From Pseudomonas sp. LS44 (GTDB taxonomy: Bacteria; Pseudomonadota; Gammaproteobacteria; Pseudomonadales; Pseudomonadaceae), in assembly GCF_024730785.1 (NCBI RefSeq), contig NZ_CP102830.1, positions 3,286,001 through 3,350,000 of the forward strand: 64,000 bases of DNA, in the 5' to 3' direction. The position numbers were made by a program, and so were the translations under genes. This document shows, in pieces, positions 13,319 to 49,001 of the stretch; the stretch's first letter is position 1; each line of letters starts with the position of its first letter. Below the pieces are notes generated by a model. It ran no database searches. It saw nothing but the letters and a program-made list of their open reading frames with translations, and was not told the DNA's origin.

Positions 13319-13651
13319 CGCACCTAAACCAGGCAGCCGATAACGGGCCAGGTTGCCTGCTTAAACCTGCGCTTCACGCCAAAAAACCGGTGAAGCGCCA
13401 GCCTGAAATCGGCAATAAGCCGGTGCAATCACACACCGGTTGTCCCCGATTCATCTGTGCGCCTCTCAAACCCGCCTCGCACTCTGGCAAATTTGCCAAT
13501 TATTTATCGGAAAACTTTTTCGCGCCGCCAATACTGGCAAATAGTCACCACGCGCAAACTAAGCCTGTTGTCATACGGCCTCCAGCGCAATGGCCATTAA
13601 TATGAAATTACTTATTCCATTAAATTTTTACCGGTAGCGCCTAGCAAGTCT

Positions 13652-13660
13652 GACGAACGG
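13652..13660 (-). promoter_or_regulatory. Putative AlgR binding site, copy 1
   Basis: GACGAACGG is the exact reverse complement of the AlgR core CCGTTCGTC known from P. aeruginosa algD. It ends four bases before the putative AlgU −35 box, similar to the promoter-proximal AlgR site of P. aeruginosa algD. A 9-mer can occur by chance, but its placement is persuasive. No equivalent was found in front of algD copy 2. Confidence 0.55.
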
Positions 13661-13664
13661 TTAG

Positions 13665-13692
13665 GAACTATCGTTTAAAAAACCCGCTCATA
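13665..13692 (+). promoter_or_regulatory. Putative AlgU (sigma-22/RpoE-type) promoter, copy 1
   Basis: GAACTA at 13665–13670 and TCATA at 13688–13692 are separated by 17 bases. This follows the AlgU pattern GAACTT-N16/17-TCtgA, and the P. aeruginosa algD promoter uses the same spacing. The match is imperfect at the last −35 base. Confidence 0.5.
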
Positions 13693-14090
13693 GCCCCGTA
13701 ACAAGTTTCAACAGCGGCAAACAAAGTGTCATTGCCAAACTTCTGAAGCCAACCTTAGAAGTCCCCAGGATTGGTTACTGAATCTGCTCCAGGTAATAGC
13801 ACTTTGATAAGGCAGATAGTCTTCTGGATATCTGTAGAAGTTCGGTATCAATGCACCAAAGCAGCACCACAAGCAGGATATACGCGGCATTACGCCCAGT
13901 ACCGGGCCGCTCTGCCGCTTTTCGGGGCAACTCTCCTAATAACATGCCCAATTTGAGCGCCACAATTCATGGCACTCCAAAATTATTATGCCTGCGCTCG
14001 GCCAATTAATATGGAGCCGAGTGCCACCAAGGCGCCGGAAAGTATAAATCCGGCATATTTAGCGGCGTGATAAACGAACAGGTGAATACA

Positions 14091-15401
14091 ATGCGTATTA
14101 GCATTTTTGGTCTTGGCTATGTCGGTGCAGTATGTGCCGGTTGCCTCTCTGCACGTGGTCATGATGTGGTCGGCGTGGATATATCCGCGGCCAAGATCGA
14201 CCTGATCAACAGTGGCAAATCGCCAATCGTTGAACCGGGTCTGGAAGAACTTCTGCAACAGGGTATCGCCAACGGAAAACTGCGCGGCACCACCGATGTC
14301 GCCGAGGCGATCCGCGATAGCGAACTGTCGATGCTCTGCGTCGGCACGCCGAGCAAGAAGAACGGCGATCTGGAACTCGATTACATCGAATCGGTATGCC
14401 GCCAGATCGGTCTGGTTCTGCGCAGCAAGACCGAACGCCACACCGTCGTGGTGCGCAGCACCGTGTTGCCGGGCACCGTGAAGAACGTGGTAATCCCGAT
14501 TCTCGAAGACTGCTCGGGCAAGAAAGCCGGGGTCGATTTCGGCGTCGCGGTCAACCCGGAATTCCTCCGTGAAAGCACCGCGATCCAGGACTACGACTTC
14601 CCGCCGATGACCGTCATCGGCGAGCTGGATAGCCGTTCGGGCGACGCCCTGGAATCCCTCTACGCAGAACTCGACGCACCGATCATCCGCAAGGACATCG
14701 AAGTCGCCGAGATGATCAAGTACACCTGCAACGTCTGGCACGCCACCAAGGTGACCTTCGCCAACGAGATCGGCAACATCGCCAAGGCGGTCGGTGTCGA
14801 TGGTCGCGAAGTGATGGACGTGGTCTGCCAGGACCACAAGCTCAATCTCTCCAAGTACTACATGCGCCCCGGCTTCGCCTTCGGCGGCTCGTGCCTGCCC
14901 AAGGACGTGCGCGCCCTCAACTACCGGGCCAGCCAGCTGGACGTCGAAGCGCCGCTGATCGGCTCGCTGATGCGTAGCAACGTCGCCCAGGTGCAGAACG
15001 CTTTCGAGCTGATTTCCAGCCACGACAAGCGCCGCGTCGCCCTGCTCGGCCTGAGCTTCAAGGCCGGCACCGACGACCTGCGCGAAAGCCCGCTGGTAGA
15101 GCTGGCCGAGATGCTCATCGGCAAGGGCTTCGACCTGCGCATCTACGATCGCAACGTCGAATACGCCCGGGTCCACGGCGCCAACAAGGACTACATCGAA
15201 TCGAAGATTCCACATGTGTCGTCCTTACTCGACAGCGATCTGGACGGCGTGATCGAGCGCTCCGACATCATCGTGCTAGGCAATGGCGACGAACGCTTCC
15301 GCGCCCTCGCCGATCAGGTGCCGGCCGGCAAACAGATCGTCGATCTGGTCGGTTTCATGGCCCACACCACTCGTAGCGGAAGTGAAGGCATCTGCTGGTA
15401 G
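14091..15401 (+). CDS. algD: GDP-mannose 6-dehydrogenase AlgD, alginate operon copy 1
   Basis: Cytosolic NAD-dependent enzyme that oxidises GDP-mannose twice to GDP-mannuronic acid, the committed alginate precursor. 436 residues, the exact family length. The N-terminus has the Rossmann motif GLGYVGAVCAG. The catalytic Cys falls at residue 268 in GFAFGGSCLPKD, the same number as in P. aeruginosa AlgD, which confirms the ATG at 14091 over an upstream in-frame start at 14067. A 226-bp gap separates it from alg8. Compared with copy 2 the protein is about 90% identical by eye, with most changes clustered around residues 95–120. Confidence 0.97.
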   Translation: MRISIFGLGYVGAVCAGCLSARGHDVVGVDISAAKIDLINSGKSPIVEPGLEELLQQGIANGKLRGTTDVAEAIRDSELSMLCVGTPSKKNGDLELDYIESVCRQIGLVLRSKTERHTVVVRSTVLPGTVKNVVIPILEDCSGKKAGVDFGVAVNPEFLRESTAIQDYDFPPMTVIGELDSRSGDALESLYAELDAPIIRKDIEVAEMIKYTCNVWHATKVTFANEIGNIAKAVGVDGREVMDVVCQDHKLNLSKYYMRPGFAFGGSCLPKDVRALNYRASQLDVEAPLIGSLMRSNVAQVQNAFELISSHDKRRVALLGLSFKAGTDDLRESPLVELAEMLIGKGFDLRIYDRNVEYARVHGANKDYIESKIPHVSSLLDSDLDGVIERSDIIVLGNGDERFRALADQVPAGKQIVDLVGFMAHTTRSGSEGICW

Positions 15402-15627: not shown

Positions 15628-17109
15628 ATGGATAGGCTCAAGCAGGCGTTTGCCGAAACTGCCGGATGGCTGTTCTACCTCAGCGTGCTGATGGTGCTCG
15701 CCCTGGCATTGCCTCGCACGCTCTTCGACCCGGATTCGAAAGACTTCATCTTGCTAATCGGCGCGGTCGGCATCTGGCGCTATTCCATGGGCGCCGCCCA
15801 TTTCCTGCGCGGCGTGTTGTTCCTCTACATCGTCTACCCGCACTACCGCCGCAAGGTACGAAAACTCGGCAGGGATGCCGACCCTTCTCACGTATTCCTG
15901 ATGGTCACCAGCTTTCGCATCGACGCACTGACCACCGCCATGGTCTATCGCTCGGTGATCGAGGAAGCCATCGACTGCGGCTTCCCGACCACCGTGGTGT
16001 GCTCGATCGTCGAGCGCTCCGATGAGCTGCTGGTGAAGTCCCTGTGGGCCAAGTACCAACCGCCAGAACGGGTCAAGCTGGACTTCGTGCGCATCGCCGG
16101 CACCGGCAAGCGCGATGGTCTGGCCAACGGTTTCCGCGCCATCTCCCGGCACATGCCGGATGAAAACGCTGTGGTCGCGGTTATCGACGGCGACAGCGTG
16201 CTCGAGCGGCATACCGTCAAGCGCACCGTGCCGTGGTTCAAGCTGTTCCCGAATGTCGGCGGGCTGACCACCAACGAGTTCTGCGAGGTGCGCGGCAGCT
16301 ACGTCATGAGCGAATGGCACAAGCTGCGCTTCGCCCAGCGGCACCTGAACATGTGCTCGATGGCCCTCTCCAAGCGGGTGCTGACCATGACCGGGCGCAT
16401 GTCGGTATTCCGCGCCAGCGTGGTAACCAACCCCGAGTTCATCGCCGATGTCGAAAGCGATCACCTCGAACACTGGCGTCTGGGGCGTTTCCGCTTCCTC
16501 ACCGGCGACGACAAGTCCAGCTGGTTCAGCCTGATGCGCCTGGGCTACGACACCTTCTACGTGCCGGACGCCGCGATCAACACGGTCGAGCATCCGCCGG
16601 AGAAAAGCTTCATCAAGGCCAGCCGCAAGCTGATGTTCCGCTGGTACGGCAACAACCTGCGGCAGAACTCGCGGGCCATGAAACTCGGCCCGAAACGCCT
16701 CGGCGCGTTCACCAGCGTGGTGTTGTTCGACCAGCGCGTGTCGATGTGGACCTGCCTGCTCGGCCTGACCGTGGCGATCATCGCCAGCATCAAATACAGC
16801 ATTGCGTATTTGCTGATCTACCTGCTGTGGATCGGCATCACCCGGTTGGTCCTGACCCTGCTGCTGTCGGTCACCGGCCACCGCATCGGACCGGCCTACC
16901 CGGTCATCCTCTATTACAACCAGATCGTCGGCGCCTTGGTGAAGATCTACGTGTTCTTCCGCCTCGACCAGCAGTCCTGGACGCGCCAGCCGACCAAGCT
17001 CACCCGCGACCTCGCCAGCTTCCAACGCTGGTTCAACACCTGGTCGTCACGCTCCATGACCTTCTCGGCTGCCAGCGTGTTTATCGCCACGCTGCTGCTC
17101 GTGGTCTGA
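15628..17109 (+). CDS. alg8: Alginate polymerase glycosyltransferase Alg8, copy 1
   Basis: Inner-membrane family-2 glycosyltransferase that polymerises GDP-mannuronate to polymannuronate and passes it to the periplasm together with Alg44. 493 residues, with paired N-terminal hydrophobic segments, a cytosolic GT domain ([37 protein letters not shown] as the RW of QxxRW) and further C-terminal membrane segments. The ATG at 15628 follows GGAGACGA. Upstream in-frame codons from 15487 read into the algD–alg8 gap and are not used. Confidence 0.95.
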
Positions 17110-17143: not shown

Positions 17144-18310
17144 ATGAATACAGCTCTGAACGTCAATGTCGTGCATGAATCGGAAACCCAGCGCCAACAC
17201 GCCCGGGTAAAAATCCCGGCCAAGATCCGCTTTGCCGGACGCAACCGTGAAGTGGTCGAACAGACCCTGCTGGATATCTCTGCCGGTGGCTTCGGCTACG
17301 CCGCGCCGAAGATTCCCGTGCAGGTCGGCGACTACCATCGCGGCAAGCTGATGTTCTCCATCGACAACCTCAGCCTGGGCCTGGAAATCGAATTCCAGGT
17401 CCGCTCGGTCGACCAGCAGAACGGCCGGATCGGCTGCCAATTCCACAATCTGCAGGGGCGGGAAATCGCCACCCTGCGCCAGTTGATCACCGCGCACCTG
17501 TCCGGTGAGCTGGTCAGCGTCGGCGAATTGCTCAGCACCCTGCAGCGCGACAACTTCACCAAACCGCGCAAGGACAAGGCCGGTGGCGGCATGGGCGTGA
17601 TGTCGCGCCTGCGCGCCGTGACCGTGAGCTTCGGGGTGCTGTTGATCGGCGCCGGCGCTTTCGCCTTCATTAGCAAATCTTTGTACGACGTGTACTTCGT
17701 CAGCCACGCCCAGTCGGCGCTGGTCAGCATGCCCGGGATGCAGGTCAGCATGCCGCGCGAAGGCACCGTGCAAAGCCTGATCGGCGCAGACGGCGTAGTC
17801 AGCAAGGGCGCGCCGATCGCCACCTTCAGCGCCTCGATGCTGGAAATGCTCAAGGGTCATCTGCAAGACAGCGACCTGCAGCCCGCCAAGCTCGAAGAGC
17901 TGTTCGACAAACAAATGAAGGGCACCCTGACCAGCCCGTGCGACTGCACGCTGATACGCCAGGTGGTTGCCGACGGCCAGTACGCCAGCAAGGGCGACGT
18001 GATCTTCCAGCTCGCCACGCGCGGCAGCCAGGCAACCATCGAAGCGCGCTTCCCCTACGCCAAATTCAACGACATCCAGCCCGGCACCCGGGTCAGCTTC
18101 GTGGTCGCCGGTGATGGCCAGAGCCGCGACGGCAAGATCGTCAGCAGCAGCCTGAACGACAACGCCGCCCTGTCGACCGACGTGCGCGTGCAGATCAAGC
18201 CCGACCAGCCGCTGGACAACGCCCTCGCCGGCCGCCCGGTGGAAGTCAGCGCCAGCCGTGGCCCGTCCCTCAACTGGCTGATCGACAAAGCCGTGGCAGC
18301 GGGGCTCTAA
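17144..18310 (+). CDS. alg44: Alginate co-polymerase Alg44 with PilZ c-di-GMP receptor domain, copy 1
   Basis: Inner-membrane co-polymerase of 388 residues: N-terminal cytosolic PilZ domain, one central membrane segment (about residues 163–183), and a periplasmic membrane-fusion-protein-like domain. The PilZ c-di-GMP contacts are intact: Arg17 and Arg21 in RQHAR, and Asp44/Ser46 in DISAGG. These numbers equal those reported for P. aeruginosa Alg44, which supports the ATG at 17144 rather than 17120. It should activate Alg8 when c-di-GMP is high. Confidence 0.95.
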   Translation: MNTALNVNVVHESETQRQHARVKIPAKIRFAGRNREVVEQTLLDISAGGFGYAAPKIPVQVGDYHRGKLMFSIDNLSLGLEIEFQVRSVDQQNGRIGCQFHNLQGREIATLRQLITAHLSGELVSVGELLSTLQRDNFTKPRKDKAGGGMGVMSRLRAVTVSFGVLLIGAGAFAFISKSLYDVYFVSHAQSALVSMPGMQVSMPREGTVQSLIGADGVVSKGAPIATFSASMLEMLKGHLQDSDLQPAKLEELFDKQMKGTLTSPCDCTLIRQVVADGQYASKGDVIFQLATRGSQATIEARFPYAKFNDIQPGTRVSFVVAGDGQSRDGKIVSSSLNDNAALSTDVRVQIKPDQPLDNALAGRPVEVSASRGPSLNWLIDKAVAAGL

Positions 18311-18312: not shown

Positions 18313-19755
18313 ATGACTGCGCAACCGCATTGCCTACTGCTACTCAGCGTCGCCGTAGCCATCGGCCTGACCGGTTGCGCCGGTCTGCCTGACCAACGCC
18401 TGGCCCAACAGGCCATGGCCCGTGGCGATACCGCGACCGCCGAGCAGAACTATCAGCAACTCGCCGACCTCGGCTACACCGAGGCGCAGGTCGGCATGGC
18501 CGATATCTATGTGGAAAGCGGCGATCCGGCGCAGTTGAACAAAGCCGAAGCCACCTATCGCCAGGCTGCCGAGCAGTCGCCACGCGCCGCCGCGCGCCTC
18601 GGCCGCCTGCTGGCCAGCAAACCGGGCGCCAGCGCCGCCGAGCATCAGGAAGCCGAAACGCTGCTCAAGCGCGCCGGAGCCGCCGGTGAGCTGAACACCC
18701 TGCTACCGCTGGCCCTGCTCTATCTGCAATACCCGCAGAGCTTTCCGCAGGTGAACGCGCAGCAACAGATCAGCCAGTGGCGCGCCGCCGGCCAGCCGCA
18801 GGCGGAGTTGGCGCAAGTGCTGCTGTATCGCAGCCAGGGCACCTACGACCAGCATCTCAACGAAATCGCCACGATCTGTCAGGCCGAGTTGGCGACCAAC
18901 GATTTCTGCTATGTCGAGCTGGCCACGGTGTTCCAGAAACGTGGCCAGACCGAGCCGCAGAAAGCCTTGATCGAGCGTCTGCATAGCGGCTGGAAGGCTG
19001 GCGCGATTGCACCGCAGCGACTCGATTCAGTGGCCGCGGTATTGGCCGACCCAGCTATTGGTACGCCCGATGCGAAAACCGCCCAGGGCCTGCTCGAAGA
19101 CATCGCCCCGAATTATCCGGCCGCCTGGGTGAGCCTCGCCCGCCTGCTCTACGACAACCCGGAGCTGGGCGACACCGAGCAGTTGATGGGTTATCTGGAC
19201 AAAGGCCGCACCGCCGCCCAGCCGCGCGCCGACCTGTTGCTCGGCAAGCTGTATTACGAAGGCAAGCTGGTCCCGCAGGACCCGTTCCAAGCCGAGAAAT
19301 ACCTGCTCAAGGCCGCAGCCGCCGGCGAGAGCGCCGCCGACTACTACCTCGGCCAGATCTACCGCCGCGGCTTCCTCGGCCAGGTCTATCCGGACAAAGC
19401 CCTGCAGCGCCTGCTGACCTCCGCCCGCGGTGGTCAGCCGAATGCCGACCTGGCCCTGGCCCAGCTGTACAGCCAGGGCCGCGGCATCCAGCCCGACCCG
19501 GTCAACGCCTACGTATTCAGCCAGCTCGCGCTGCTGAGCGGCAAACCCGAGGCCACGACCCTCGCCGCGCAGCTCACCGCGCAATTGCCGGCCGCCCAGC
19601 GCAGTCGAGCCGACAGCCTGTTGCAGGCTGAACGGCAGTTCCGAGGCACCCAGCCGAGCACTGCGCAAACCGCCGCGGTAGCCGCGGTTATCGATGCCGA
19701 CGACAGCGCTGAAGACGCGACTCCAGCGCCCAGCTCAGCCGCTTTGAAACCTTGA
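18313..19755 (+). CDS. algK: Alginate secretion TPR lipoprotein AlgK, copy 1
   Basis: Outer-membrane lipoprotein of 480 residues built of TPR/Sel1-like helical repeats. It helps AlgE insert and links it to the periplasmic complex. The lipobox is LTGC followed by AGLPDQRL after a hydrophobic signal. Repeat-like units include [21 protein letters not shown] and [15 protein letters not shown]. The tail (last ~35 residues) is Ala/Thr/Asp-rich and poorly conserved with copy 2. It begins two bases after alg44 ends, so translation is likely coupled. Confidence 0.95.
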
Positions 19756-19766
19756 AGGACGATCTG

Positions 19767-21272
19767 ATGAAACTGATGGACATGCCTATGAAACGCCCCT
19801 CCCCGCTCGGTAAGCATTTGCTAGGCAAGAGCGTGCTCGGCAAAACCCTGCTCGGCAGCACGCTGACCTTGCCGCTGCTCGCCAGCTCGGCCTGGGCCGT
19901 GCAGATGACCGACGACAGCTGGGGCCTGGATGTGAAGATCACCGCGCAGTCCGAAGACGACCGCGACCTCGGCACCCGCGACGGCGGCGACGTCAACGGC
20001 CTGGGCCTCGACGTGCGTCCGTGGGGCTACCTCAAGCGTGGCGACTGGAGTGCCTTCGCCATGGGCCAGGCGGTCACCGCCACCGACATCATCGAAACCG
20101 ACACCCTGCAATCCGACGATCTCAGCGCCGACGACAGCAGCGACAACGGCCGCCAGCCGGACAAGAGCTACCTGGCGCTGCGCGAGTTCTGGGTCGGCTA
20201 TTCCGGCCTTACCGCCTACCCCGGCGAAGAACTGCGTTTCGGCCGCCAGCGCCTGCGCAGCGACGACGGCATGTGGCGCGACAGCAACATCGAGGCACTC
20301 AACTGGAGCTTCGACACCACCTTGCTGCGCGCCCATCTTGGCGCGGCGCAACGCTTCAGCGAGTACCGCACCGACATCGACGACCTGGCCCCGGAAGACG
20401 AGGATCGCCTGCACCTGTTCGGCGATATCGCCACGCAATGGACGCCGGGCCACTGGGCCGGCCTCAACCTGCACCACAGCCGCGACGACGGCAACCTCGA
20501 CCAGCCCGGTGAAGTCGTCGACCCGCTCGACAAGACCAGCACCGGCGATCTCACCTGGCTCGGCCTACAAGCCAATAGCGACGCCTACAACTCGCGCAAC
20601 ACCCAGCAACTCAACTACTGGGCCAGCGCGACCTGGCTGACCGGCGACCGCGAGCGCCTGACCAGCACCACCATCGGCGACGAGCGGATCGCCACCGGCA
20701 AGCAAAGCGGCGACGTCAACGCCTGGGGTACCGACCTTGGTCTGCGCTGGCGCTTCGACCCGAGCTGGCAGGCCGGTGTGGCCTATGCGCGCGGCAGTGG
20801 CGGCGGTGGCGATGACGGCGACGAGAACTTCCAGCAGACCGGCCTGGAGAGCAACCGCTCGACCTACACCGGCACCCGATCGCGCGTGCACCGTTTCGGC
20901 GAGGCATTCCGCGGCGAGCTGAGCAATCTGCAGAGCGCCACGCTGTTCGGCTCCTGGCAGCTGCGCGACGAGTACGACGCCAGCCTGGTTTACCACCGCT
21001 TCTGGCGGGTCGATGGCGACCAGCCGATCGGCGACAGCGGCATCACCGCGGCGATGCCCAACAACGACAAAGACGTGGGTCAGGAAGTCGACCTGATCGT
21101 CACCAAATACTTCAAAGAAGGCCTGCTGCCGGCGGCCATGAGCCAGGCGATCGACGAGCCGTCGGCGCTGGTGCGTTTCCGCGGCGGCGTGTTCAAGCCC
21201 GGCGACGCCTATGGCAGCCAGGCTGACTCGACGATGCATCGTGCCTTCGTCGACGTGATCTGGCGCTTCTGA
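19767..21272 (+). CDS. algE: Alginate outer-membrane porin AlgE, copy 1
   Basis: Outer-membrane beta-barrel (18 strands in the P. aeruginosa structure) through which alginate leaves the cell. 501 residues ending in an aromatic C-terminus (DVIWRF), the usual barrel-assembly signal. The signal region is unusually long and contains a short repeated pattern ([17 protein letters not shown]) before the cleavage site near SSAWA. I use the ATG at 19767, six bases after AAGGA; the ATG at 19788 would give a more standard signal peptide. The stop codon overlaps an ATG at 21272. Confidence 0.95.
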
Positions 21273-21289
21273 TGCGGAGGACCGGCGAG

Positions 21290-24740: not shown

Positions 24741-24748
24741 GGTTACCC

Positions 24749-31414: not shown

Positions 31415-31432
31415 TTAAAAAGATATCCCGCG

Positions 31433-39295: not shown

Positions 39296-40840
39296 GTGAC
39301 TCTGCTCGCCGCCTTGCTGCTGCTCGGCAGCACCGCCGCTCTGGCCAGGCCGCCGGACGCGGCGCTGGTCCCCAGCACGACCCAAGAACTGCGCGAAGCC
39401 AAGACCTATACCGTTACCAGTGCACCGATCGAACCCTTGCACCTGGCCAAGCCCAAGCTGCCCGATCTGTCCGGCTACAGCGCCGCGGCGGTGCAGGCCA
39501 AGATCCAGCGCAGCAAGCCCGGCCGGATAACGCTGCGGCGCATGCTGAGGCAGGACGCGTTGAAGGAGTTCGTCGGCGGCAACAACCGCCTGGCCGAATG
39601 GGTCAGGCGCCAGCGCGGCATGCCGCAGGCAATCTTCATCGAGGGCGGTTACGTCAACCTCGCCGAGCTGGCGCAGAATTTGTCCAAGCAGTACTTCAGC
39701 CAGACCGCCAAGGGTGTGTATCTGGCGCGCCTGCCGATCGTGGTGGCGCAGGGCGCGACCCTGCATATCGACCGCCAGACCCTGCGCCTGTCGCAGGAGC
39801 GCGGCGCCTTCCTGGTCAATGACGGCAAGCTGTTCATCGAAGGCAGCCAGATCATCGGCTGGCGCGAGGCGGCCAACGCCGCGGCGAGCTTCCGCACGGC
39901 CAAGGAATTCCGTCCGTTCCTGCTGTCCTGGGGTGGCACCGAGACCTACATCGTCAACAGCACGGTGACCAGCCTTGGCTACGACGAGAGCAAGTCCTAC
40001 GGCCTGAATATCTCGCAGTACTCGCCGGACATGCGCAAGCGCATGGGCCGCGCCGCGCCACGCGGCTGGCTGATCGACTCGGAGTTCGTCGACCTGTGGT
40101 ACGGCTTCTATTGCTACGAAGCGCAGGACATCGTGGTCAAGGGCAACACCTACCGCGACAGCCTGATCTACGGCATCGACCCGCACGACCGTTCGCAGCG
40201 CCTGATCATCGCCGGCAACACCGTGCACGGCACCAAGAAAAAGCACGGCATCATCGTCTCCCGCGAGGTCAACGACAGCTGGATCTTCAACAACAAGAGC
40301 TACGACAACCAGCTCTCCGGCATCGTTCTCGACCGCAACAGCAGCAACAACCTGGTGGCCTACAACGAGGTGTACCAGAACCGTGCCGACGGCATCACCC
40401 TCTACGAAAGCTCGAACAACCTGCTGTGGGGCAATCGCGTCGTCGACAACGCGCGACACGGCATCCGCCTGCGCAACAGCGTGAACATCCGCCTGTACGA
40501 GAACCTCGCCGCCGGCAATGGGCTGAGCGGCATCTACGGGCACACCAAGGACCTCTCCGACACCGACCGCGACATCGCTCTCGACCCCTTCGACACCAAG
40601 GTGTCGATGATCGTGGTCGGCGGCAAGCTCGCCGGCAACGGCTCAAGCCCCTTGGCCATCGACTCGCCGCTGAGCGTCGAGCTGTATCGGGTCGACATGC
40701 TGATGCCGAGCAAGACCTCGGGCATCAGCCTCAGCGGCATCCTCGGCGAGCGCCAGGAAGAAATTCTCGACCTGCTGGTACGCCAGCAGAAAGCCGTGCT
40801 GATCGACCCGGTGGAAAGCCAGGCCGAACTCCAGCAGTGA
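39296..40840 (+). CDS. algG: Mannuronan C5-epimerase AlgG, copy 2, start re-created at repeat edge
   Basis: Second periplasmic epimerase. The beta-helix domain is complete, with YGIDPHDRS, GIIVSREVNDSW and the C-terminal region ending QAELQQ. The native ribosome-binding site and ATG at 38991 are out of frame behind repeats. The most plausible start is GTG at 39296, where the inserted palindrome itself supplies GGGAGAGGG just upstream. That gives 514 residues beginning with a short signal (TLLAALLLLGSTAALA) that lacks the usual basic n-region. A longer in-frame reading from 39182 adds 38 residues of repeat-encoded sequence. Expression or export may be reduced. Confidence 0.85.
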   Translation: MTLLAALLLLGSTAALARPPDAALVPSTTQELREAKTYTVTSAPIEPLHLAKPKLPDLSGYSAAAVQAKIQRSKPGRITLRRMLRQDALKEFVGGNNRLAEWVRRQRGMPQAIFIEGGYVNLAELAQNLSKQYFSQTAKGVYLARLPIVVAQGATLHIDRQTLRLSQERGAFLVNDGKLFIEGSQIIGWREAANAAASFRTAKEFRPFLLSWGGTETYIVNSTVTSLGYDESKSYGLNISQYSPDMRKRMGRAAPRGWLIDSEFVDLWYGFYCYEAQDIVVKGNTYRDSLIYGIDPHDRSQRLIIAGNTVHGTKKKHGIIVSREVNDSWIFNNKSYDNQLSGIVLDRNSSNNLVAYNEVYQNRADGITLYESSNNLLWGNRVVDNARHGIRLRNSVNIRLYENLAAGNGLSGIYGHTKDLSDTDRDIALDPFDTKVSMIVVGGKLAGNGSSPLAIDSPLSVELYRVDMLMPSKTSGISLSGILGERQEEILDLLVRQQKAVLIDPVESQAELQQ

Positions 40841-40851: not shown

Positions 40852-42297
40852 ATGCAAGCACACAACCGAATGGGTCACTGGATACGCCTGGCGCCGCTGG
40901 CCCTGACTTTGTTCGCCGCCAACGCAGTGCTGGCGGAAAACCCGCCGCTGGCCCCGGCCTACCAGGCCAAGCCCTGCTGCAACCTATGCCCAGCGGCGCA
41001 CGATGCCAGCCGCTACACCAGCAACTACCAGAAGAACTTCATCACCCTGGTGCAGGCCCAGGGCGACTGGCTGTTCCGCACCCGCGAAGATCTGCGCACC
41101 GAGTTCGACACCACCCCGGCCGGCTACCGCCGCTTGCAACAGCTGCACGATGCCTTCCAGAGCAAGGGCATCGAACTGGTGCTGGTCTATCAACCGACCC
41201 GCGGCCTGGTCAATCGCGACAAGCTCAACCCGGCACAGATGGCCAGCTTCAACTATCAACGGGCGCTGACCAACTACCAGGCCATGCTCGGCCGCTTCGC
41301 GAAGATGGGCTACCACGTGCCGGACCTCTCGCCGCTGGCCGACGAGCAGGAAGAACACGCCTTCTACTTCCGCGGCGATCAGCACTGGACCCCTTACGGC
41401 GCGCAGCGCGTGGCCAAGCGCGTGGCCGCGACGATCAAGCAGCTGCCCGTCTACCAGGGCATCCCCAAGCGCGAGTTCGTCAGCGAGGTGATCGGCCGCA
41501 TGGGCAAGCGCGGCACCCTGCACAACGTCGCCGGCCAGCTGTGCGGCACCAGCTATGCCATCGAATACATAGACCAGTTCGCCACCGAACCGAAGGACGC
41601 GAGCGGCAGCGACGAGCTGTTCGGCGATACCGGCAACCCGCAAATCACCCTGCTCGGCACCAGCCAGAGCGGGCCGGACTACAACTTCGCCGGCTTCCTG
41701 CAGGAGTACATCGGTGCCGATGTGTTCAACGCCGCCGTCCCCGGTGGCGGCCTGGAAGGCGCGATGATCGAATACCTGGGCAGCCAGGAATTTCGCGACC
41801 ACCCACCGAAGATCCTGATCTGGGAACTCTCCCCGCTCTATCCCCTCGATCAGGACAGCAGCTACCGCCAGCTGTTCGCCTTGCTCGACAACGGCTGCGC
41901 CGACAAGCCAGCCGTGCTATCGGCCAAGACCAAGCTGCGCCCCGGCAGCAACGAGGTGCTGGTCAACGGCAGCAACGGCCTCAAGGACGTGCGCAACGGC
42001 CAATACCAGATGGACATCCGCTTCGCCGACACCTCGGTGAAGACCCTGCAGGCCACCCTCTGGTACCTCAACGGCCGGCGCGAGACGTTGAAGATCGAGA
42101 AGCCGAAAACCACCGAAACCGACGGCCGCTTCGCCTTCGAACTGCGCGCGGACCAGGACTGGGCCGACCAGACCCTGCTCTCCCTCGAGTTGCAAGGCCC
42201 GCCAGCGGGCAGCAAGCCGCTCGCGGTCGAGGCCAAGGTGTGTCAGCGCAACCGCTTCTCCGCCCCGGCGCAGCACACCGCCCAGGCCGAGCCATGA
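40852..42297 (+). CDS. algX: Alginate O-acetyltransferase AlgX, copy 2
   Basis: Second AlgX, 481 residues from ATG 40852, after GAGGA. The signal peptide ends near AVLAE, and the mature start carries the CCNLC cysteines. Asp/His are in [12 protein letters not shown] and the Ser motif is LLGTSQSG, where copy 1 has GTSHSG. The C-terminal carbohydrate-binding module is present, and the last ~12 residues differ from copy 1. A much longer in-frame reading that starts inside algG is an artefact of GC-rich codon use. Confidence 0.94.
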
Positions 42298-42307
42298 GGA
42301 CGCCGTG

Positions 42308-43420
42308 ATGCGTGCCCAACGCCTGCTGCTCAGCCTCCTGACTTGCACCCTGTTCGCTACCGGCACGGTGCAAGCCGCCGGGCTGGTGCCGCCGCCCGGC
42401 TATTACGCCGCGATCGAGCAGGACAAAAAAGCCGAGCCCCAGGCCTGTGCGCTGGCGACGCCGACGCCCTATACCGACGCCCTGGTGTTCCGCAGCAAGT
42501 ACGAAGGCTCGGGCCAGGCGCGCGCCACCCTCAACCGCGAAGCCGAAAAGGACTTTCGCGAGAAGACCAAAGCCATCAACGAACTCGAGCGCGGGGTCAA
42601 CAAGCAGGTGATGCGCTACATGCAGGACAGTCACCCGCAAAGCCTGCAATGCACCCTGCAATGGCTTACGGCCTGGGCGCAGGCCAACGCGCTGCTGTCC
42701 ACCGACTACAACCACACCGGCAAATCGATGCGCAAATGGGCGTTGGGCAGTCTCTCGTCGGCCTGGCTGCGCCTCAAGTTCAGCGAATCGCAACCGCTTA
42801 CGCCGTACGCGCCGCAGAGCCAGCAGATCGAAGCCTGGTTCGCCGAAGTGGCCGAACAGACGGTCAAGGACTGGAGCGACCTGCCGCTCCAGCAGATCAA
42901 CAACCACTCCTACTGGGCCGCCTGGTCGGTGATGGCCACAGCGGTGGTGACTGACCGCCGCGATCTGTTCGATTGGTCGGTGCAGCAATTCCAGGTAGCC
43001 GCCGGCCAGGTCGACAGCGACGGCTTTCTGCCCAACGAATTGAAGCGCCAGAAACGCGCGCTCGACTACCACAACTATGCCCTGCCGCCGCTGGCGATGA
43101 TCGCCGCGTTCGCCCAAGCCAACGGCGTGGACCTGCGCGACGACCACGACCAAGCGCTGCGCCGCGTGGCCGAGCGGGTCATGCAGGGCATTGCCGATCC
43201 GCAAGCCTTCGTCACCAAAGTCGGCAAGAGCCAGAAAATTCCCGACCTCGACGAAGCCGGCAAATTCGCCTGGCTGGAGCCGTACTGCACGCTGTACCGC
43301 TGCAGTGCCGAGACGTTGAAGTGGAAGCAGTCGATGCAACCGCTGAAAAACTTTCGCCTCGGTGGCGACCTCACCCAGCTGTTCGAGCCCAAGGCGGAGG
43401 AGAAGGAAAAGAAAGGCTGA
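42308..43420 (+). CDS. algL: Alginate lyase AlgL, copy 2
   Basis: Second periplasmic family-5 lyase, 370 residues, with a normal signal peptide ([19 protein letters not shown], cleavage near TVQAAG) and no inserted element. The mature start [24 protein letters not shown] and [11 protein letters not shown] match copy 1. ATG 42308 has GAGGA upstream; the adjacent GTG at 42305 is in frame but less likely. This copy shows what the N-terminus of copy 1 should look like. Confidence 0.95.
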
Positions 43421-43913: not shown

Positions 43914-45422
43914 ATGGTTTTCTCATCCAACGTGTTCCTGTTCCTGTTCTTGCCGACCTTTCTCGGCTTGTACTACTTGAGCGGGCCACGTTTTCACAAT
44001 CTGCTACTGCTGATCGCCAGCTACGTCTTCTACGCCTGGTGGCGGATCGACTTTCTCGCCCTGTTCGCCCTCGTCACCCTGTGGAATTTCTGGATCGGCC
44101 TCAAAGTTGGCGCCGCCGGGGTGCGCACGCCGCTGGCCAAGCGTTGGCTGATCCTCGGCGTAAGCTTCGATCTGGCCATCCTCGGCTATTTCAAATACGC
44201 CAACTTCGGCGTCGACAGCCTCAATACGCTGATTACCTCAATCGGCCTCGAGCCATTCATCATTACCCACGTGCTGCTGCCGATCGGGATCTCGTTCTAC
44301 ATCTTCGAATCGATCAGCTACATCATCGACGTCTACCGCGGCGACACCCCGGCTACCCACAAGCTGATCGACTTCGCAGCCTTCGTGGCGATCTTCCCGC
44401 ACCTGATCGCCGGCCCGGTGCTGCGCTTTCGCGATCTGGCCGGGCAATTCAACAACCGTACCCACACCCTCGATAAGTTCTCCGAGGGCTGCATGCGCTT
44501 CATGCAGGGCTTCATCAAGAAGGTCTTTATCGCCGACAGCCTGGCGCCGCTGGTCAGCCATTGCTTCGCCCTGGAAAACCCCAGCGCCGGCGACGCCTGG
44601 CTCGGCACCCTGGCCTACACCGCGCAGCTGTATTTCGACTTTTCCGGCTACAGCGACATGGCCATCGGTCTCGGCCTGATGATGGGCTTCCGCTTTCTGG
44701 AAAACTTCAAACAGCCTTATATCAGCCAGTCGATCACCGAATTCTGGCGGCGCTGGCATATCAGCCTGTCGACCTGGCTGCGCGATTACCTGTACGTCAG
44801 CCTCGGCGGCAATCGCGGTGGCACGTTCGCCACCTACCGCAACCTGTTCCTGACCATGCTGCTCGGCGGCCTGTGGCACGGCGCCAACATCACCTTCGTG
44901 TTGTGGGGCGCCTGGCACGGCATGTGGCTGGCCATCGAGCGGGCGTTGGGCGTGGATGCGGCGCCGCGGCGCTTCAATCCGTTGAAATGGGCGGCGACCT
45001 TCCTGATGGTGATTCTCGGCTGGGTGTTGTTCCGCGCCGAGAACCTGCATGTGGCCGCGCGCATGTACCAGGCGATGTTCAGCTTCGACTGGCAACTCTC
45101 CGAGCTGGGCAGCGCCGCCCTCAGCGATCTGCAAGTGGCGACGATGCTGATCGCCTACCTCAGCCTGGCCTTTTTCGGACTGCGCGACTTCTACACCAAG
45201 CCGCTCGCCAATGCGGCGCCCAAGGCCGCGGTCGACGACATCGCCAGCAACCCTGCCCCGGGTATTGCCGAGAGCCTGCCGGCGGCTTCCAGCACGGCAG
45301 TCCGCCTCGCCTCAAGCTGGACGGCCTACCTGCACTGGCCGCTGTTGCTCCTGCTGTTCGGCGCCTCGCTGTTGAAACTCTCGGCGCAGAGTTATTCGCC
45401 CTTCCTGTACTTCCAGTTCTGA
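43914..45422 (+). CDS. algI: Alginate O-acetylation MBOAT protein AlgI, copy 2
   Basis: Second MBOAT acetyl carrier, 502 residues, starting MVFSSNVFLFLFLP like copy 1. The active-site His is in GGLWHGANITFVLWGAWHG. Identity with copy 1 is very high through residues 1–400; the cytosolic/periplasmic loop before the last membrane segment (after YTKPLANAAPKAA) is shorter and diverged. The same GGAGAAACGCGG sequence precedes both starts. Confidence 0.95.
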   Translation: MVFSSNVFLFLFLPTFLGLYYLSGPRFHNLLLLIASYVFYAWWRIDFLALFALVTLWNFWIGLKVGAAGVRTPLAKRWLILGVSFDLAILGYFKYANFGVDSLNTLITSIGLEPFIITHVLLPIGISFYIFESISYIIDVYRGDTPATHKLIDFAAFVAIFPHLIAGPVLRFRDLAGQFNNRTHTLDKFSEGCMRFMQGFIKKVFIADSLAPLVSHCFALENPSAGDAWLGTLAYTAQLYFDFSGYSDMAIGLGLMMGFRFLENFKQPYISQSITEFWRRWHISLSTWLRDYLYVSLGGNRGGTFATYRNLFLTMLLGGLWHGANITFVLWGAWHGMWLAIERALGVDAAPRRFNPLKWAATFLMVILGWVLFRAENLHVAARMYQAMFSFDWQLSELGSAALSDLQVATMLIAYLSLAFFGLRDFYTKPLANAAPKAAVDDIASNPAPGIAESLPAASSTAVRLASSWTAYLHWPLLLLLFGASLLKLSAQSYSPFLYFQF

Positions 45423-45432: not shown

Positions 45433-46581
45433 ATGAACCGATCCCTGCGCATTTTCTACTCCGCCCTGTTCCTCGCCCTGCTCCTGGTGCTCGGCGGCCT
45501 GTCGCTGCGCGCCTTCAGCGACTACAGCGTGCCGCCGGGCACCACCTGGCTCGACGGCAAATGGGCCAAGGCACTGGAAACCCGCTACGACGCGGAATTC
45601 CCGCTCAAGCGCCTGGGCACTAACCTGTGGGCCGCACTGGATTACACGCTGTTCGAGGAGGGCCGGCCGGGGGTGATTCTGGGGCGCCAGGACTGGCTGT
45701 TCAGTGACGAGGAATTCAAACCGGTGGCGCGCGGCGAGCAGCATATCGAGGACAACCTCAGGCTGATCCGCGGCGTCCAGCAGACCCTTGAGCAACGCGG
45801 CATCGAACTGCTGCTGGTCATCGTTCCGGCCAAGGCGCGGGTGTATCCGGAATACCTCGCCGAAGAACAGCCGGCCAGGCTGCAACGCGGGCTGTATCGA
45901 CGCTTCCACGCCGATCTGGCCAAGGCCGACATCGCCGCGCCCGACCTGCTCGCCATGCTGCAGCAGGGCAAAGCCAACACCGCGCTGTTCCTGCGCACCG
46001 ACACGCACTGGACCCCGCAAGGTGCCGAGTTGGTGGCCGCCCATCTGGCCCGCATCATTCAGCGGGAGGCGCCACTGTCCGGCGCGGCGCAGCAGTTCGT
46101 CACCGACATCGACGCGTCCCGGCCGTACCACGGTGACCTGACCCGCTTCCTGCCGCTCGACCCATTGTTCAGCAAGCTGCTGCCGCCGCCCGATCCGCTG
46201 CAAGTGCGCAGCACCCGCGCCGTCGACAGCGGACAGGCCGACGAAGCCGCGGCGCTGTTCGCCGACCTGCGCATTCCCCTCGTGTTGGTGGGTACCAGCT
46301 ACAGCGCCAATCCCAACTGGAACTTCCTCGGCGCGCTGCGCCAGGCGTTGGGCAGCGACCTGCTCAGCTATGCCGAGGACGGGCACGGACCGCTGTTACC
46401 GATGCTCAAGTACCTGCAAACCGATGCCTTCAAAGACTCGCCGCCACAGTTGGTGATCTGGGAATTTCCCGAGCGTTACCTGCCGATGGCGACTGACCTG
46501 AGCCAACTCGACCCACAGTCGGTCGAGCAGCTCAAAGCCGCCGCCGCGCCAGGTCAACGCCTGACTGCCACGGCCAAATGA
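45433..46581 (+). CDS. algJ: Alginate O-acetyltransferase-like protein AlgJ, copy 2
   Basis: Second AlgJ, 382 residues, with N-terminal membrane segment, Asp/His in LRTDTHWTPQGAE and Ser in LVGTSYSANPNWNF. It begins 10 bases after algI. Its C-terminal ~20 residues differ from copy 1. It should act with AlgI, AlgF and AlgX, and cross-pairing of parts between the two operons is likely since the interfaces look conserved. Confidence 0.95.
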   Translation: MNRSLRIFYSALFLALLLVLGGLSLRAFSDYSVPPGTTWLDGKWAKALETRYDAEFPLKRLGTNLWAALDYTLFEEGRPGVILGRQDWLFSDEEFKPVARGEQHIEDNLRLIRGVQQTLEQRGIELLLVIVPAKARVYPEYLAEEQPARLQRGLYRRFHADLAKADIAAPDLLAMLQQGKANTALFLRTDTHWTPQGAELVAAHLARIIQREAPLSGAAQQFVTDIDASRPYHGDLTRFLPLDPLFSKLLPPPDPLQVRSTRAVDSGQADEAAALFADLRIPLVLVGTSYSANPNWNFLGALRQALGSDLLSYAEDGHGPLLPMLKYLQTDAFKDSPPQLVIWEFPERYLPMATDLSQLDPQSVEQLKAAAAPGQRLTATAK

Positions 46582-46604
46582 TCCGCGCTAAGGAGAAACC
46601 ACCC

Positions 46605-47273
46605 ATGAAGAACTCCCCGCTGGCCAACTCATTCAATCGTCACCGCGCCATCGCCATCTGCACTTGGCTACTTGTCGGACTGTTCAGCTGGCAGGCCCAG
46701 GCCGCCGTCGACGCCGCGCTCTATGGGCCGTCTGCGCCAAAGGGGTCGACCTTCGTGCGCCTGTACAACGCCAGCAATCAGGAGGTCAGCGCCAACGTCG
46801 GCAACACCAAGCTCGATGACGTCGGCCCGCTGGCCAGCAGCGACTTCAGCTTCATGCCGGGCGGCAGTTATAGCGCGCAGGTCGGTGGCCAGACCGTGCC
46901 GGTCCAGCTCGATTCCGGACGCTATTACACCTTGGTCAGTCTGCCGGCCGGCCAGCCACGCCTGGTGGAGGAGAAACCCTACACCAACAAGCAAAAAGCC
47001 CTGCTGCGCGTGCAGAACCTCAGCAACACGCCACTCAGTCTGAAGACCGCCGACGGCAAGACCGCGGTGGTGGATAACGTCGCGCCGCAGGGTTCCGGCG
47101 ACCGCGAGATCAACCCGGTCAAGGTCAACCTGGCGCTGTACGACGGCGACAAGAAAGTCAGCGATCTCAAACCGGTGACGCTGGAACGCGGCGAGGTGGT
47201 GTGCCTGTACGTCACCGGCAGCACCGGCAAGCTCGCCCCGGTCTGGGTCAAGCGCCCGCGGGCGTCCAATTGA
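46605..47273 (+). CDS. algF: Alginate O-acetylation adaptor AlgF, copy 2
   Basis: Second AlgF, 222 residues from ATG 46605, with GGAG nine bases upstream. The signal peptide ends near WQAQAAV and the mature protein begins DAALYGPSAPKGSTFVRLYN. About 80% identical by eye to copy 1, among the most diverged pairs, with changes spread over the whole length. An in-frame ATG at 46578 overlaps the end of algJ and is not used. Confidence 0.93.
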   Translation: MKNSPLANSFNRHRAIAICTWLLVGLFSWQAQAAVDAALYGPSAPKGSTFVRLYNASNQEVSANVGNTKLDDVGPLASSDFSFMPGGSYSAQVGGQTVPVQLDSGRYYTLVSLPAGQPRLVEEKPYTNKQKALLRVQNLSNTPLSLKTADGKTAVVDNVAPQGSGDREINPVKVNLALYDGDKKVSDLKPVTLERGEVVCLYVTGSTGKLAPVWVKRPRASN

Positions 47274-47555
47274 ACATTCACAACGGTAGCGCCGTAGCCC
47301 GGATGAAATCTGGGGAAGTCATCACCGGCCCTCCCGGATTTCATCCGGGCTACGAGGCTGGCGGTTTGCACAAATCAGTCCCCTCGCCCTTCAGGGAGAG
47401 GGTTAGGGAGAGGGCAACGGCCGGTCGGAATTGTGGCCCCCGCCCTCTCCCCCGGCCCCTCTCCCTGAAGTGAGAGGGGAGAAAAAGCACCACAACACCG
47501 TCCCGCCGAATGCCGTGCGGGAGACTCTAAACCCACTGAAATCAGGAGAACCATC
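47274..47555. repeat. Repeat-filled gap between algF and algA, copy 2
   Basis: About 280 bp. It contains a GTAGCCCGGATGAAATC…GATTTCATCCGGGCTAC inverted repeat (47294–47353) followed by CCCTCTCCC/GAGAGGG hairpins (47380–47482). Copy 1 has only the second family at this junction. The last 20 bases carry CAGGAGAACC for algA, as in copy 1. Confidence 0.8.
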
Positions 47556-49001
47556 ATGATCCCGGTCATTCTTTCAGGCGGCAGCGGCTCACGGCTCTGG
47601 CCGCTCTCGCGCCGGCAGTTTCCCAAGCAGTTCCTCGCCCTCACCGGCGAGCACACCCTGTTCCAGCAGACCCTCGAACGCCTGGTCTTCGACGGCATGC
47701 AGGCGCCGCTGCTGGTCTGCAACAAGGATCACCGGTTCATCGTGCAGGACCAGCTCGCTGAGCTGAAACTCTCGATCCAAGGCATTTTGCTCGAACCGTT
47801 CGGTCGCAATACCGCGCCGGCGGTGGCCATCGCCGCCTTGCAACTGCTCAACGAGGGCCGTGACGCGCTGTTGCTGGTGCTGCCGTCCGATCATGTTTTG
47901 GAAGACCAGCAAGCGTTCAAACGCGCCCTGGCGCTGGCCACCATCGCCGCCGAAAACGGCGAGATGGTGCTGTTCGGCGTGCCGGCGAACAAACCGGAAA
48001 CCGGTTACGGCTATATCAAGGCGCATGCCGATCCCGGCTTGCCGAAGGGCATCAACCGGGTCGCCCAGTTCATCGAGAAGCCTGACGAGCAACGTGCCGC
48101 CCAGTTCGTCGCGTCCGGCGACTACTTCTGGAACAGCGGCATGTTTTTGTTCCGCGCCAGCCGCTTCCTCGATGAACTGAAGAAACACGAACCGGATATC
48201 TACGACACCTGCGTGCTGGCCCTGGAGCGCAGCAAGCGCAACGGCACGCACATCGATATCGACGAATCGACCTTTGCCTGCTGCCCGGAAAACTCCATCG
48301 ACTACGCGGTGATGGAGAAAACCTCGCGCGCTTGCGTGGTGCCGCTGGATGCCGGCTGGAGCGACGTCGGCTGCTGGTCATCGATCTGGGATGTGCACGA
48401 CAAGGATGCCGACGGCAACGTCACCATAGGCGATGTGATCGTCCAGGACAGCCACAACTGCCTGCTCCACGGTAACGGCAAGCTGGTCTCGGTGATCGGC
48501 CTGGAAAACATCGTGGTGGTGGAAACCAAGGACGCCATCATGATCGCCCGCAAGGACCGCGTGCAGGAGGTCAAACAGTTGGTCGAGAAGCTCCGCTCGC
48601 TCGACCGCAGCGAAGCGGAAAATCACTGTCAGGTCTTCCGCCCGTGGGGCTTTTACGACTCGGTGGATACCGGCGGGCGCTTTCAGGTCAAACACATCAC
48701 CGTCAACCCGGGCGCGCAGCTGTCGCTGCAGATGCACCATCACCGCTCGGAACACTGGATCGTGGTCTCCGGAACCGCCCAGGTGACCTGCGACGACCAG
48801 GTATTTTTGCTCACCGAAAACCAGTCGACCTACATCCCTATCGCCTCGGTGCACCGCCTGGCCAACCCCGGCAAGATCCCACTGGTGCTGATCGAGGTGC
48901 AGACCGGCAGTTATCTTGGCGAGGACGACATCACCCGCCTGGACGACGTCTACGGCCGCGGCGCGGAGATCGCCAAATCCGAGCTGCCCGGTTCGCGATG
49001 A
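47556..49001 (+). CDS. algA: Bifunctional phosphomannose isomerase / GDP-mannose pyrophosphorylase AlgA, copy 2
   Basis: Second AlgA, 481 residues, starting MIPVILSGGSGSRLWPLSRR. Pyrophosphorylase landmarks (FIEKPDEQRAAQF, NSGMFLFRASRFLDELKKH) and the cupin isomerase motif QMHHHRSEHWIVVSGTA are intact. It closes the second operon. Since one AlgA would be enough catalytically, its retention fits preservation of the operon as a unit or a dosage effect. Confidence 0.96.
   Translation: MIPVILSGGSGSRLWPLSRRQFPKQFLALTGEHTLFQQTLERLVFDGMQAPLLVCNKDHRFIVQDQLAELKLSIQGILLEPFGRNTAPAVAIAALQLLNEGRDALLLVLPSDHVLEDQQAFKRALALATIAAENGEMVLFGVPANKPETGYGYIKAHADPGLPKGINRVAQFIEKPDEQRAAQFVASGDYFWNSGMFLFRASRFLDELKKHEPDIYDTCVLALERSKRNGTHIDIDESTFACCPENSIDYAVMEKTSRACVVPLDAGWSDVGCWSSIWDVHDKDADGNVTIGDVIVQDSHNCLLHGNGKLVSVIGLENIVVVETKDAIMIARKDRVQEVKQLVEKLRSLDRSEAENHCQVFRPWGFYDSVDTGGRFQVKHITVNPGAQLSLQMHHHRSEHWIVVSGTAQVTCDDQVFLLTENQSTYIPIASVHRLANPGKIPLVLIEVQTGSYLGEDDITRLDDVYGRGAEIAKSELPGSR

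What the first reader, a model, noticed from the sequence alone, without database searches (positions are those of the whole stretch)
13319..49001. Two complete alginate operons in direct tandem
All twelve genes algD-8-44-K-E-G-X-L-I-J-F-A occur twice, in the same order and orientation, with algD-to-algD spacing of about 17.8 kb. Every pair keeps its key catalytic residues. Known alginate producers such as P. aeruginosa carry one such operon, and I know of no described tandem pair. A direct repeat of this size should be lost easily by recombination, so retention suggests selection (dosage, separate regulation, or two polymer types).
Basis: partly seen in the sequence, partly recalled or inferred. 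Interest (0 to 1): 0.95.

Follow-up and report, generated by a model that had tools for sequence, protein, structure and literature searches.

The report
Ancient tandem pair of alginate operons
This Pseudomonas carries two complete sets of alginate (slime) genes side by side, an arrangement shared with a cave Pseudomonas and likely an old duplication, and the second set has a changed residue in its c-di-GMP sensor that would let it make slime in response to different signals.

Summary
Two full 12-gene alginate operons (algD-8-44-K-E-G-X-L-I-J-F-A) stand head to tail at about 14.1-31.4 and 31.9-49.0 kb of a single-contig 4.46 Mb genome. The copies are 71-87% identical as proteins and 81% as DNA, so this is no assembly duplicate. 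Pseudomonas cavernae has the same tandem; it was the only other one found among 398 sampled genomes. The concatenated tree puts the split of the copies before the split from P. insulae, which has one operon at the same site. Both copies look under purifying selection (omega about 0.22). They differ in control. Copy 2 Alg44 has Glu for the c-di-GMP-binding Asp44, as in 10 of 137 proteins, one clade that reaches Metapseudomonas. The copy 2 promoter has an AlgU-like core but no AlgR core beside it, unlike copy 1. Most likely reading: an old duplicate kept as a separately switched alginate machine. Expression, c-di-GMP affinity and polymer were not testable. My searches of open-licence papers showed no tandem whole alginate operon.

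The parts
13320..14090 (+). Upstream region and leader of operon 1: AlgR core GACGAACGG at 13652 (439 nt before algD), four bases before an AlgU-like promoter GAACTA-N17-TCATA at 13665 (426 nt before algD)
   Evidence: blocks of 57 and 60 bp conserved with P. insulae (88%) and P. cavernae (82%)
14091..15401 (+). algD copy 1, GDP-mannose dehydrogenase
15628..17109 (+). alg8 copy 1, glycosyltransferase family 2 polymerase
17144..18310 (+). alg44 copy 1, PilZ + HlyD; Asp44 kept
18313..19755 (+). algK copy 1
   Evidence: over NCBIfam cut-off
19752..21272 (+). algE copy 1, outer-membrane export (start uncertain)
21272..23305 (+). algG copy 1, mannuronan epimerase; about 160 codons, largely repeat-derived, precede the AlgG match; start uncertain
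23313..24740 (+). algX copy 1
24737..25996 (+). algL copy 1, alginate lyase (start uncertain)
26300..27832 (+). algI copy 1, MBOAT acetyltransferase
27844..28992 (+). algJ copy 1
28999..29673 (+). algF copy 1
29975..31414 (+). algA copy 1, PMI/GMP
31415..31885 (+). Inter-operon region (471 bp): 9-bp GC hairpin after algA1, then AlgU-like promoter GAACTC-N17-TCTCA at 31594 (292 nt before algD2); no AlgR core within one mismatch in the 700 nt before algD2
   Evidence: the terminator scan found no T-tailed site
31886..33196 (+). algD copy 2
33389..34888 (+). alg8 copy 2
34898..36112 (+). alg44 copy 2, PilZ + HlyD; Asp44 replaced by Glu; R17, R21, S46 and R95 kept
36063..37517 (+). algK copy 2 (start uncertain)
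   Evidence: over NCBIfam cut-off
37529..38974 (+). algE copy 2 (ATG start read from the sequence)
39296..40840 (+). algG copy 2 (GTG start suggested by the sequence)
40852..42297 (+). algX copy 2 (corrected frame)
42305..43420 (+). algL copy 2
43914..45422 (+). algI copy 2
45433..46581 (+). algJ copy 2
46578..47273 (+). algF copy 2
47556..49001 (+). algA copy 2
49244..50795 (+). Downstream neighbours (154-aa protein and short-chain dehydrogenase) that also follow the tandem in P. cavernae and the single operon in G027, G060, G260 and G012 (5 of the 12 other regions examined): marks the native site

Best explanation
The window holds two complete alginate operons in direct tandem, likely one old duplication at the native alginate site, and the second operon is predicted to work as a separately switched alginate machine with a retuned c-di-GMP gate. 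Shown: both gene sets are complete and diverged, with omega well below 1; a second species has the same tandem; copy 2 Alg44 has Glu at position 44, where the Asp of P. aeruginosa Alg44 is needed for c-di-GMP binding; the two algD upstream regions of this genome no longer align with each other, and only copy 1 has an AlgR core beside its AlgU-like promoter. Inferred: AlgU opens both operons under envelope stress, AlgR adds to copy 1 only, and the E44 form of Alg44 activates its Alg8 partner at a different c-di-GMP level, so the cell can make alginate in two regulatory settings. Also inferred: P. insulae lost copy 2, and E44-type alg44 reached other Pseudomonadaceae by horizontal transfer.
For: Completeness and order. 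The same tandem in G266, which is P. cavernae: its contig has the length given for two P. cavernae Alg44 records (4,949,615) and encodes both proteins letter for letter after the start. The 12-gene concatenated test of 105 in-group topologies (nine taxa, outgroup fixed) prefers (((G000_1,P. insulae),G266_1),(G000_2,G266_2)) with AU 0.98; a single duplication after the P. insulae split has AU 2.7e-52 and two separate duplications 9.6e-81. The copy 2 pair is together in the best tree of 12 of 12 genes. Omega is 0.221 and 0.218 for the two orthologous pairs. 42 copy-2-specific against 5 copy-1-specific changes at 2515 outgroup-invariant columns. E at position 44: 1 of 128 held loci with this genome's own copies left out (the one is P. 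cavernae copy 2), and 10 of 137 proteins, this genome's copy 2 included, one clade at 99.9/100. D44A loses c-di-GMP binding and alginate in P. aeruginosa (passage of PMC12564702). AlgU consensus GAACTT-N16/17-TCtgA, with A. vinelandii algD at GAACTA-N16-TCttA (passages of PMC10651043). AlgR core CCGTTCGTC (passages of PMC4064291). G000 has one LytTR-domain match (the AlgR type, a label from recall) and one RpoE/AlgU-type sigma factor over cut-off.
Against: No expression, binding or polymer data. Asp to Glu is conservative and may leave binding nearly unchanged. P. cavernae copy 2 keeps GACGCACGG, the reverse complement of the algC-ABS3 AlgR site named in PMC4064291, so AlgR-core loss is shown for this genome only. 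The AlgU-like pattern occurs in 146 of 3000 shuffled 700-nt stretches, so the copy 2 promoter alone is weak evidence. The duplication-before-P. insulae class is best for only 6 of 12 genes and disfavoured (AU below 0.05) by algD, algL and algA; five single genes (alg8, algG, algI, algF, algA) do not reject a duplication after the P. insulae split. Without algG and algX the best tree has AU 0.66 and a tree with P. cavernae copy 1 beside the copy 2 pair is not rejected (0.35). The rpoB region groups G000 with G266, whereas copy 1 groups G000 with P. insulae. Third codon positions favour orthologs only weakly (244 to 204). Recombination thus blurs the history, and entry of copy 2 from a sister lineage is not excluded. 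The start of algG copy 1 is unclear.
Confidence: 0.6

Rival explanations
1. Import beside the native operon: copy 2 came from a sister lineage by homologous recombination (for example single-crossover entry of a circular intermediate), not from a local tandem duplication.
For: E44-type Alg44 also occurs under the names Metapseudomonas resinovorans and Pseudomonas sp. GCM10022186, whose D44-type Alg44s sit in another clade, so these genes likely move between species. The copy 2 algG-algX-early algL tract is about 97% identical between this genome and P. cavernae (pS 0.05-0.06 in algG and algX, against 0.30 overall), likely a recent exchange.
Against: In the Alg44 tree, the E44 forms and the copy 1 clade stand together against all other sequences in the tree at 100/100, as a local duplicate would. 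The tandem sits at the native site with conserved downstream neighbours.
Confidence: 0.25
2. Simple dosage: both operons make the same polymer under the same control and two copies just give more of it.
For: The catalytic motif patterns searched match in both copies here, and omega is well below 1 in both orthologous pairs.
Against: Copy 2 carries D44E and 41 further type-specific changes, and its upstream region has no detectable similarity to that of copy 1 in this genome.
Confidence: 0.2
3. Two polymer types: AlgG, AlgX, AlgI, AlgJ, AlgF or AlgL changes in copy 2 give a different alginate (G content, acetylation or length).
For: Copy 2 has type-specific changes in AlgG (6), AlgX (2), AlgI (4), AlgF (2) and AlgL (2); none in AlgJ.
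Against: The searched catalytic motif patterns match in both copies; none of the changed sites is tied to specificity here.
Confidence: 0.12
4. Assembly artefact or mixed culture.
For: Large direct repeats can be misassembled.
Against: Copies 81% identical in DNA, single contig, 0.76% contamination, same tandem in a second single-contig genome.
Confidence: 0.01

Closest known systems
Canonical algD-algA alginate operon of Pseudomonas and Azotobacter
   Same: Twelve genes, order, strand, searched catalytic motif patterns, AlgU-type promoter pattern.
   Different: Present twice in tandem; copy 2 has Alg44 E44 and a diverged promoter.
Whole and partial alginate operon duplications in Pseudomonas reported in PMC7112194 (passages read)
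   Same: More than one alginate operon per genome; P. resinovorans 136 named as having a partial duplication that lost the acetylation genes.
   Different: That survey of 1733 genomes (64 alginate operons) says all duplicated exopolysaccharide operons lay at least 10 kb apart and took this to suggest transfer rather than tandem duplication. Here two complete operons stand 471 bp apart.
Two alginate gene clusters in the draft genome of P. alcaliphila 34 (PMC3587930, passage read)
   Same: Two clusters in one genome.
   Different: Relative position and completeness are not given in the passage.
Unlinked second alginate operon of a distant clade (AlgK 46-54% identical), as in P. insulae
   Same: Second alginate gene set in a genome.
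   Different: On another contig or far away, and much more diverged; in P. insulae no algI, algJ or algF match (E 1e-20) lay in the 20-kb stretch around it.

Membership tests
Alginate biosynthetic operon (algD to algA), copy 1 | All twelve genes in canonical order | tested here: met
Alginate biosynthetic operon (algD to algA), copy 2 | All twelve genes in canonical order | tested here: met
Alginate biosynthetic operon, both copies | Catalytic motifs of AlgD, Alg8, AlgG, AlgX, AlgL, AlgI, AlgJ and AlgA (patterns from recall, then searched) | tested here: met
   both copies of this genome; in P. cavernae copy 2 two of the patterns (one AlgL, one AlgA) did not match
Alginate biosynthetic operon, copy 1 | Alg44 PilZ residues R17, R21, D44, S46, R95 | tested here: met
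Alginate biosynthetic operon, copy 2 | Alg44 PilZ residues R17, R21, D44, S46, R95 | tested here: not met
   four of five kept, D44 is E; it is an alginate operon by content, but its c-di-GMP gate may differ
Alginate biosynthetic operon, both copies | AlgU-type promoter before algD | tested here: inconclusive
   pattern present before both; chance about 5% per 700 nt
Alginate biosynthetic operon, both copies | AlgR site near the promoter (not universal: P. syringae algD lacks one per a PMC4064291 passage) | tested here: inconclusive
   exact core in copy 1, none within one mismatch in copy 2; exact core in 6 and one-mismatch core in 16 of 91 other upstream regions (some loci overlap)
Alginate biosynthetic operon, both copies | Makes and exports alginate | not testable with these tools
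   needs deletion strains and polymer analysis
Tandem (in situ) duplication | Copies adjacent, same orientation, at the ancestral site | tested here: met
   downstream neighbours shared with five other regions; the upstream genes of this window were not matched there
Tandem (in situ) duplication | Copies are each other's nearest relatives at the duplication node | tested here: inconclusive
   Alg44: copy 1 clade plus E44 clade against the rest at 100/100, but the copy 1 clade itself only 51.8/85; import from a sister lineage not excluded

The most novel reading that the evidence does not exclude
Copy 2 founds a distinct class of alginate operon, the E44 type, born by tandem duplication in the P. 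cavernae/P. insulae lineage: its Alg44 gates the polymerase at a different c-di-GMP level, and it has since spread horizontally into Metapseudomonas as a second alginate system, so that one cell runs two c-di-GMP-tuned alginate machines.
Probability: 0.3. Interest if true: 0.75.

Novelty: new variant of a known kind. Interest (0 to 1): 0.6.

Why it matters
To my knowledge (recall), alginate control by c-di-GMP has been worked out on one operon per cell. Here one chromosome offers two full machines that differ at a residue known to be needed for c-di-GMP binding, and another species has the same pair. If the reading is right, the question of why Alg44 needs c-di-GMP, and what a shifted threshold does, becomes testable by deleting one operon at a time. 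It would also show that a 17.8-kb, 12-gene direct duplicate can persist through speciation while exchanging tracts by gene conversion and transfer.

Tried and rejected
Assembly artefact: rejected (copies 81% identical in DNA; second species with the tandem). Two separate duplications in G000 and P. cavernae: rejected by the concatenated data (AU 9.6e-81) and by 10 of 12 single genes at AU below 0.05; algD (0.050) and algJ (0.37) do not reject it. I first read the AlgR site as lost in both copy 2 promoters; the P. cavernae copy 2 has a one-mismatch site equal to a reported algC site, so I dropped that. I first took D44E as private to the two tandem species; the protein searches showed eight more E44 proteins. 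Synonymous divergence between copies is lower within P. cavernae (pS 0.22) than between species (0.30), which at first suggested a recent duplication; high GC3 (0.90-0.93) and conversion patches may explain it, but I did not model this. A run centred on G266 (397 genomes), one more genus draw (348) and an E44-type Alg44 query (348) brought no further tandem; these draws seem to overlap the first 398. The survey looks for AlgK, so a tandem whose second algK is lost, or one collapsed in a draft, would be missed. A plasmid search gave eight Rhizobium records below 60% identity. The terminator scan found no T-tailed terminator between the operons; a 9-bp GC hairpin is there. Structure prediction was not used: I judged that it would not tell D44 from E44 affinity.
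Full report
Observation. The window is G000:C1:3286001-3350000 of a one-contig genome of 4,461,138 bases. Twelve alginate genes occur twice, all on the + strand, in the order D-8-44-K-E-G-X-L-I-J-F-A. Both AlgK, both AlgG and both AlgL copies pass NCBIfam cut-offs; the others match the expected Pfam families in both copies, and the two algD products match the nucleotide-sugar dehydrogenase subfamily. Protein identity between copies runs from 71% (alg44, algJ, algX, algK) to 87% (alg8); codon-aligned DNA identity is 81.1% over 5141 codons. One correction: algX2 lies at 40852-42297, not in the 40986 frame.

Who else has it. In 398 genomes drawn from the genus, this one included, 355 have an AlgK match at E 1e-60 or better. 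Nineteen show two matches; I looked up the places for these 19 plus three single-copy genomes. Two of the 19 have both genes about 17.7 kb apart on one contig: this genome and G266. Fifteen have a second AlgK of a distant clade (46-54% identity to copy 2), on another contig or far away. G204 has its second (65%) on another contig, and G329 (790 contigs) is too broken to tell. G266 is P. cavernae: its contig length equals that of two P. cavernae Alg44 records, and both proteins are encoded in it letter for letter after the start. Both G266 operons hold all twelve genes. P. insulae UL073 (G027, locus L035) has one operon at the same site, recognised by the 154-aa protein and the short-chain dehydrogenase that follow it. 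These neighbours were found in 5 of the 12 other regions examined (G266, G027, G060, G260, G012); some of the misses are short stretches, and the upstream genes of this window were not matched there. Between algA and these neighbours P. insulae has a solute-binding/ligand-gated-channel-like gene instead of a second operon. P. cavernae, P. insulae, P. carbonaria and P. thermotolerans form the Thermotolerans clade, proposed as Zestomonas (passages of PMC10797017). The rpoB region joins this genome to P. cavernae (99.8/100), so the window's host is likely a member of that clade.

History. Over all 105 rooted topologies of the five in-group operons (four outgroup genomes, fixed), the concatenated proteins (5093 columns) favour copy 2 of both species as sister to copy 1 of both species plus P. 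insulae (AU 0.98); one duplication after the P. insulae split and two separate duplications are rejected (AU 2.7e-52 and 9.6e-81). Without algG and algX the same tree is best (AU 0.66), a tree with P. cavernae copy 1 beside the copy 2 pair is not rejected (0.35), and the two rejected histories stay rejected (2.7e-5, 1.4e-6). Single genes are less clear. That class of topology is best for 6 of 12 (alg8, alg44, algE, algX, algI, algJ); algD, algL and algA disfavour it (AU 0.003, 0.03, 0.01). Five genes (alg8, algG, algI, algF, algA) do not reject a duplication after the P. insulae split. In all 12 best trees the two copy 2 genes are together. Sites informative at codon positions 1 and 2 split 431 ortholog-type, 118 paralog-type and 35 crossed; third positions split 244, 204 and 44. 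The paralog excess over crossed sites, and stretches such as algL codons 100-300 of P. cavernae at 92-99% between its own copies, point to gene conversion (inference). A separate tract, algG to the first 100 codons of algL, is about 97% identical in copy 2 of the two species (pS 0.05-0.06 in algG and algX, 0.30 overall), which points to recent transfer between species.

Selection and divergence. Omega (Nei-Gojobori) is 0.221 for the copy 1 pair and 0.218 for the copy 2 pair, so both copies seem to be kept by selection. At 2515 columns invariant in the outgroups, copy 2 has 42 shared changes of its own and copy 1 (with P. insulae) has 5: copy 1 stays near the ancestral state, copy 2 has moved.

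The c-di-GMP gate. One of the 42 is Asp44 to Glu in Alg44, the D of the PilZ DxSxxG motif. R17, R21, S46 and R95 are kept. The aligned P. aeruginosa Alg44 PilZ structures shown (4rt0, 4xrn) carry D at this position. A 2025 review passage reports that D44A and the Arg mutants lose c-di-GMP binding and alginate (PMC12564702). Another review passage prints E44 for the essential P. aeruginosa residue (PMC8461298), which disagrees with the 4rt0 sequence. Among held loci with this genome's own left out, 127 of 128 have D and one has E, the P. cavernae copy 2 (one hit per locus, some loci overlap). Among 137 proteins listed by two searches, 127 have D and 10 have E; each search listed only its best 120 hits. 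In a tree of 40 of these 137 (all ten E forms included) plus five others, the E forms are one clade (99.9/100), and E forms plus the copy 1 clade stand apart from all others (100/100); the copy 1 clade itself has 51.8/85. The E clade includes proteins named for M. resinovorans and Pseudomonas sp. GCM10022186, names that each also label a D form in a different clade; transfer is the simplest reading (inference). PMC7112194 reports a partial alginate operon duplication in P. resinovorans 136 (passage), which may be this type; I could not fetch its neighbourhood.

Promoters. The AlgU pattern GAACT(A/C)-N17-TCNNA is present before both algD genes and before algD in P. cavernae (both copies), P. 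insulae and four others, 9 of 9 regions examined. The published consensus is GAACTT-N16/17-TCtgA and A. vinelandii algD uses GAACTA (PMC10651043 passages). The pattern appears by chance in 146 of 3000 shuffled 700-nt stretches. Copy 1 has the exact AlgR core, reversed, four bases before the -35 box; P. cavernae copy 1, P. insulae, G229 and G120 have it at the same place. Copy 2 of this genome has none within one mismatch, nor does G060; G260 has only displaced one-mismatch sites; P. cavernae copy 2 has GACGCACGG, the reverse complement of the algC-ABS3 site (PMC4064291 passages). Copy 1 upstream DNA still aligns with P. cavernae and P. insulae around the promoter, while copy 1 and copy 2 upstream DNA of this genome do not align with each other; those of P. 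cavernae still do over 145 bp.

Mechanism. I take copy 2 to be a second alginate machine opened by AlgU but not, in this genome, helped by AlgR, and gated by an Alg44 with a shifted c-di-GMP response. The gene content, the omega values, the promoter differences and the D44E change are shown; the sigma factor use, the shifted response and the resulting two-setting control are inferred.

Known work. Searches for tandem, duplicated or second alginate operons (listings seen) found PMC7112194, which states that duplicated exopolysaccharide operons lay at least 10 kb apart, and a draft-genome note with two alginate clusters (PMC3587930). I read passages of these, not the whole texts. The one P. cavernae paper opened (PMC10797017) was read in taxonomy passages only. 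None of the passages describes a tandem complete pair.

Noticed in passing
21402-21728, 26018-26174, 43510-43572, 47279-47368: REP-like palindromes (GTAGCCCGGATGNAATCCGGG) sit in four of the six E-G, L-I and F-A junctions of the two operons; a CCCTCTCCC/GGGAGAGGG repeat is in five of the six, the other two junctions among them. The genome has 158 exact half-sites against 29 in P. cavernae and 1 in P. insulae.
   Followed up: partly
21272-21760: The 5' end of algG copy 1 is filled with repeat-derived sequence in frame; I saw no ATG, GTG or TTG start just before its signal-peptide core, so it may depend on a distant start or on the AlgG of copy 2.
   Followed up: partly
7980-8918: A GGDEF protein with a cyclic-nucleotide-binding domain, a possible diguanylate cyclase, lies about 5 kb upstream of operon 1.
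   Followed up: no
60054-61526: ECF sigma factor and FecR-type regulator pair downstream of the operons.
   Followed up: no
L127:12679-13791: In P. insulae a family 3 solute-binding protein with ligand-gated ion-channel signatures sits where the second operon is in the two tandem species.
   Followed up: partly
L128 (G027:C1:362001-382000): P. insulae has a second, distant alginate operon with no algI, algJ or algF match in this stretch.
   Followed up: no
39050-42620: The copy 2 tract algG to early algL is about 97% identical to that of P. cavernae while the other copy 2 genes are 77-88%: likely a recent transfer tract.
   Followed up: yes
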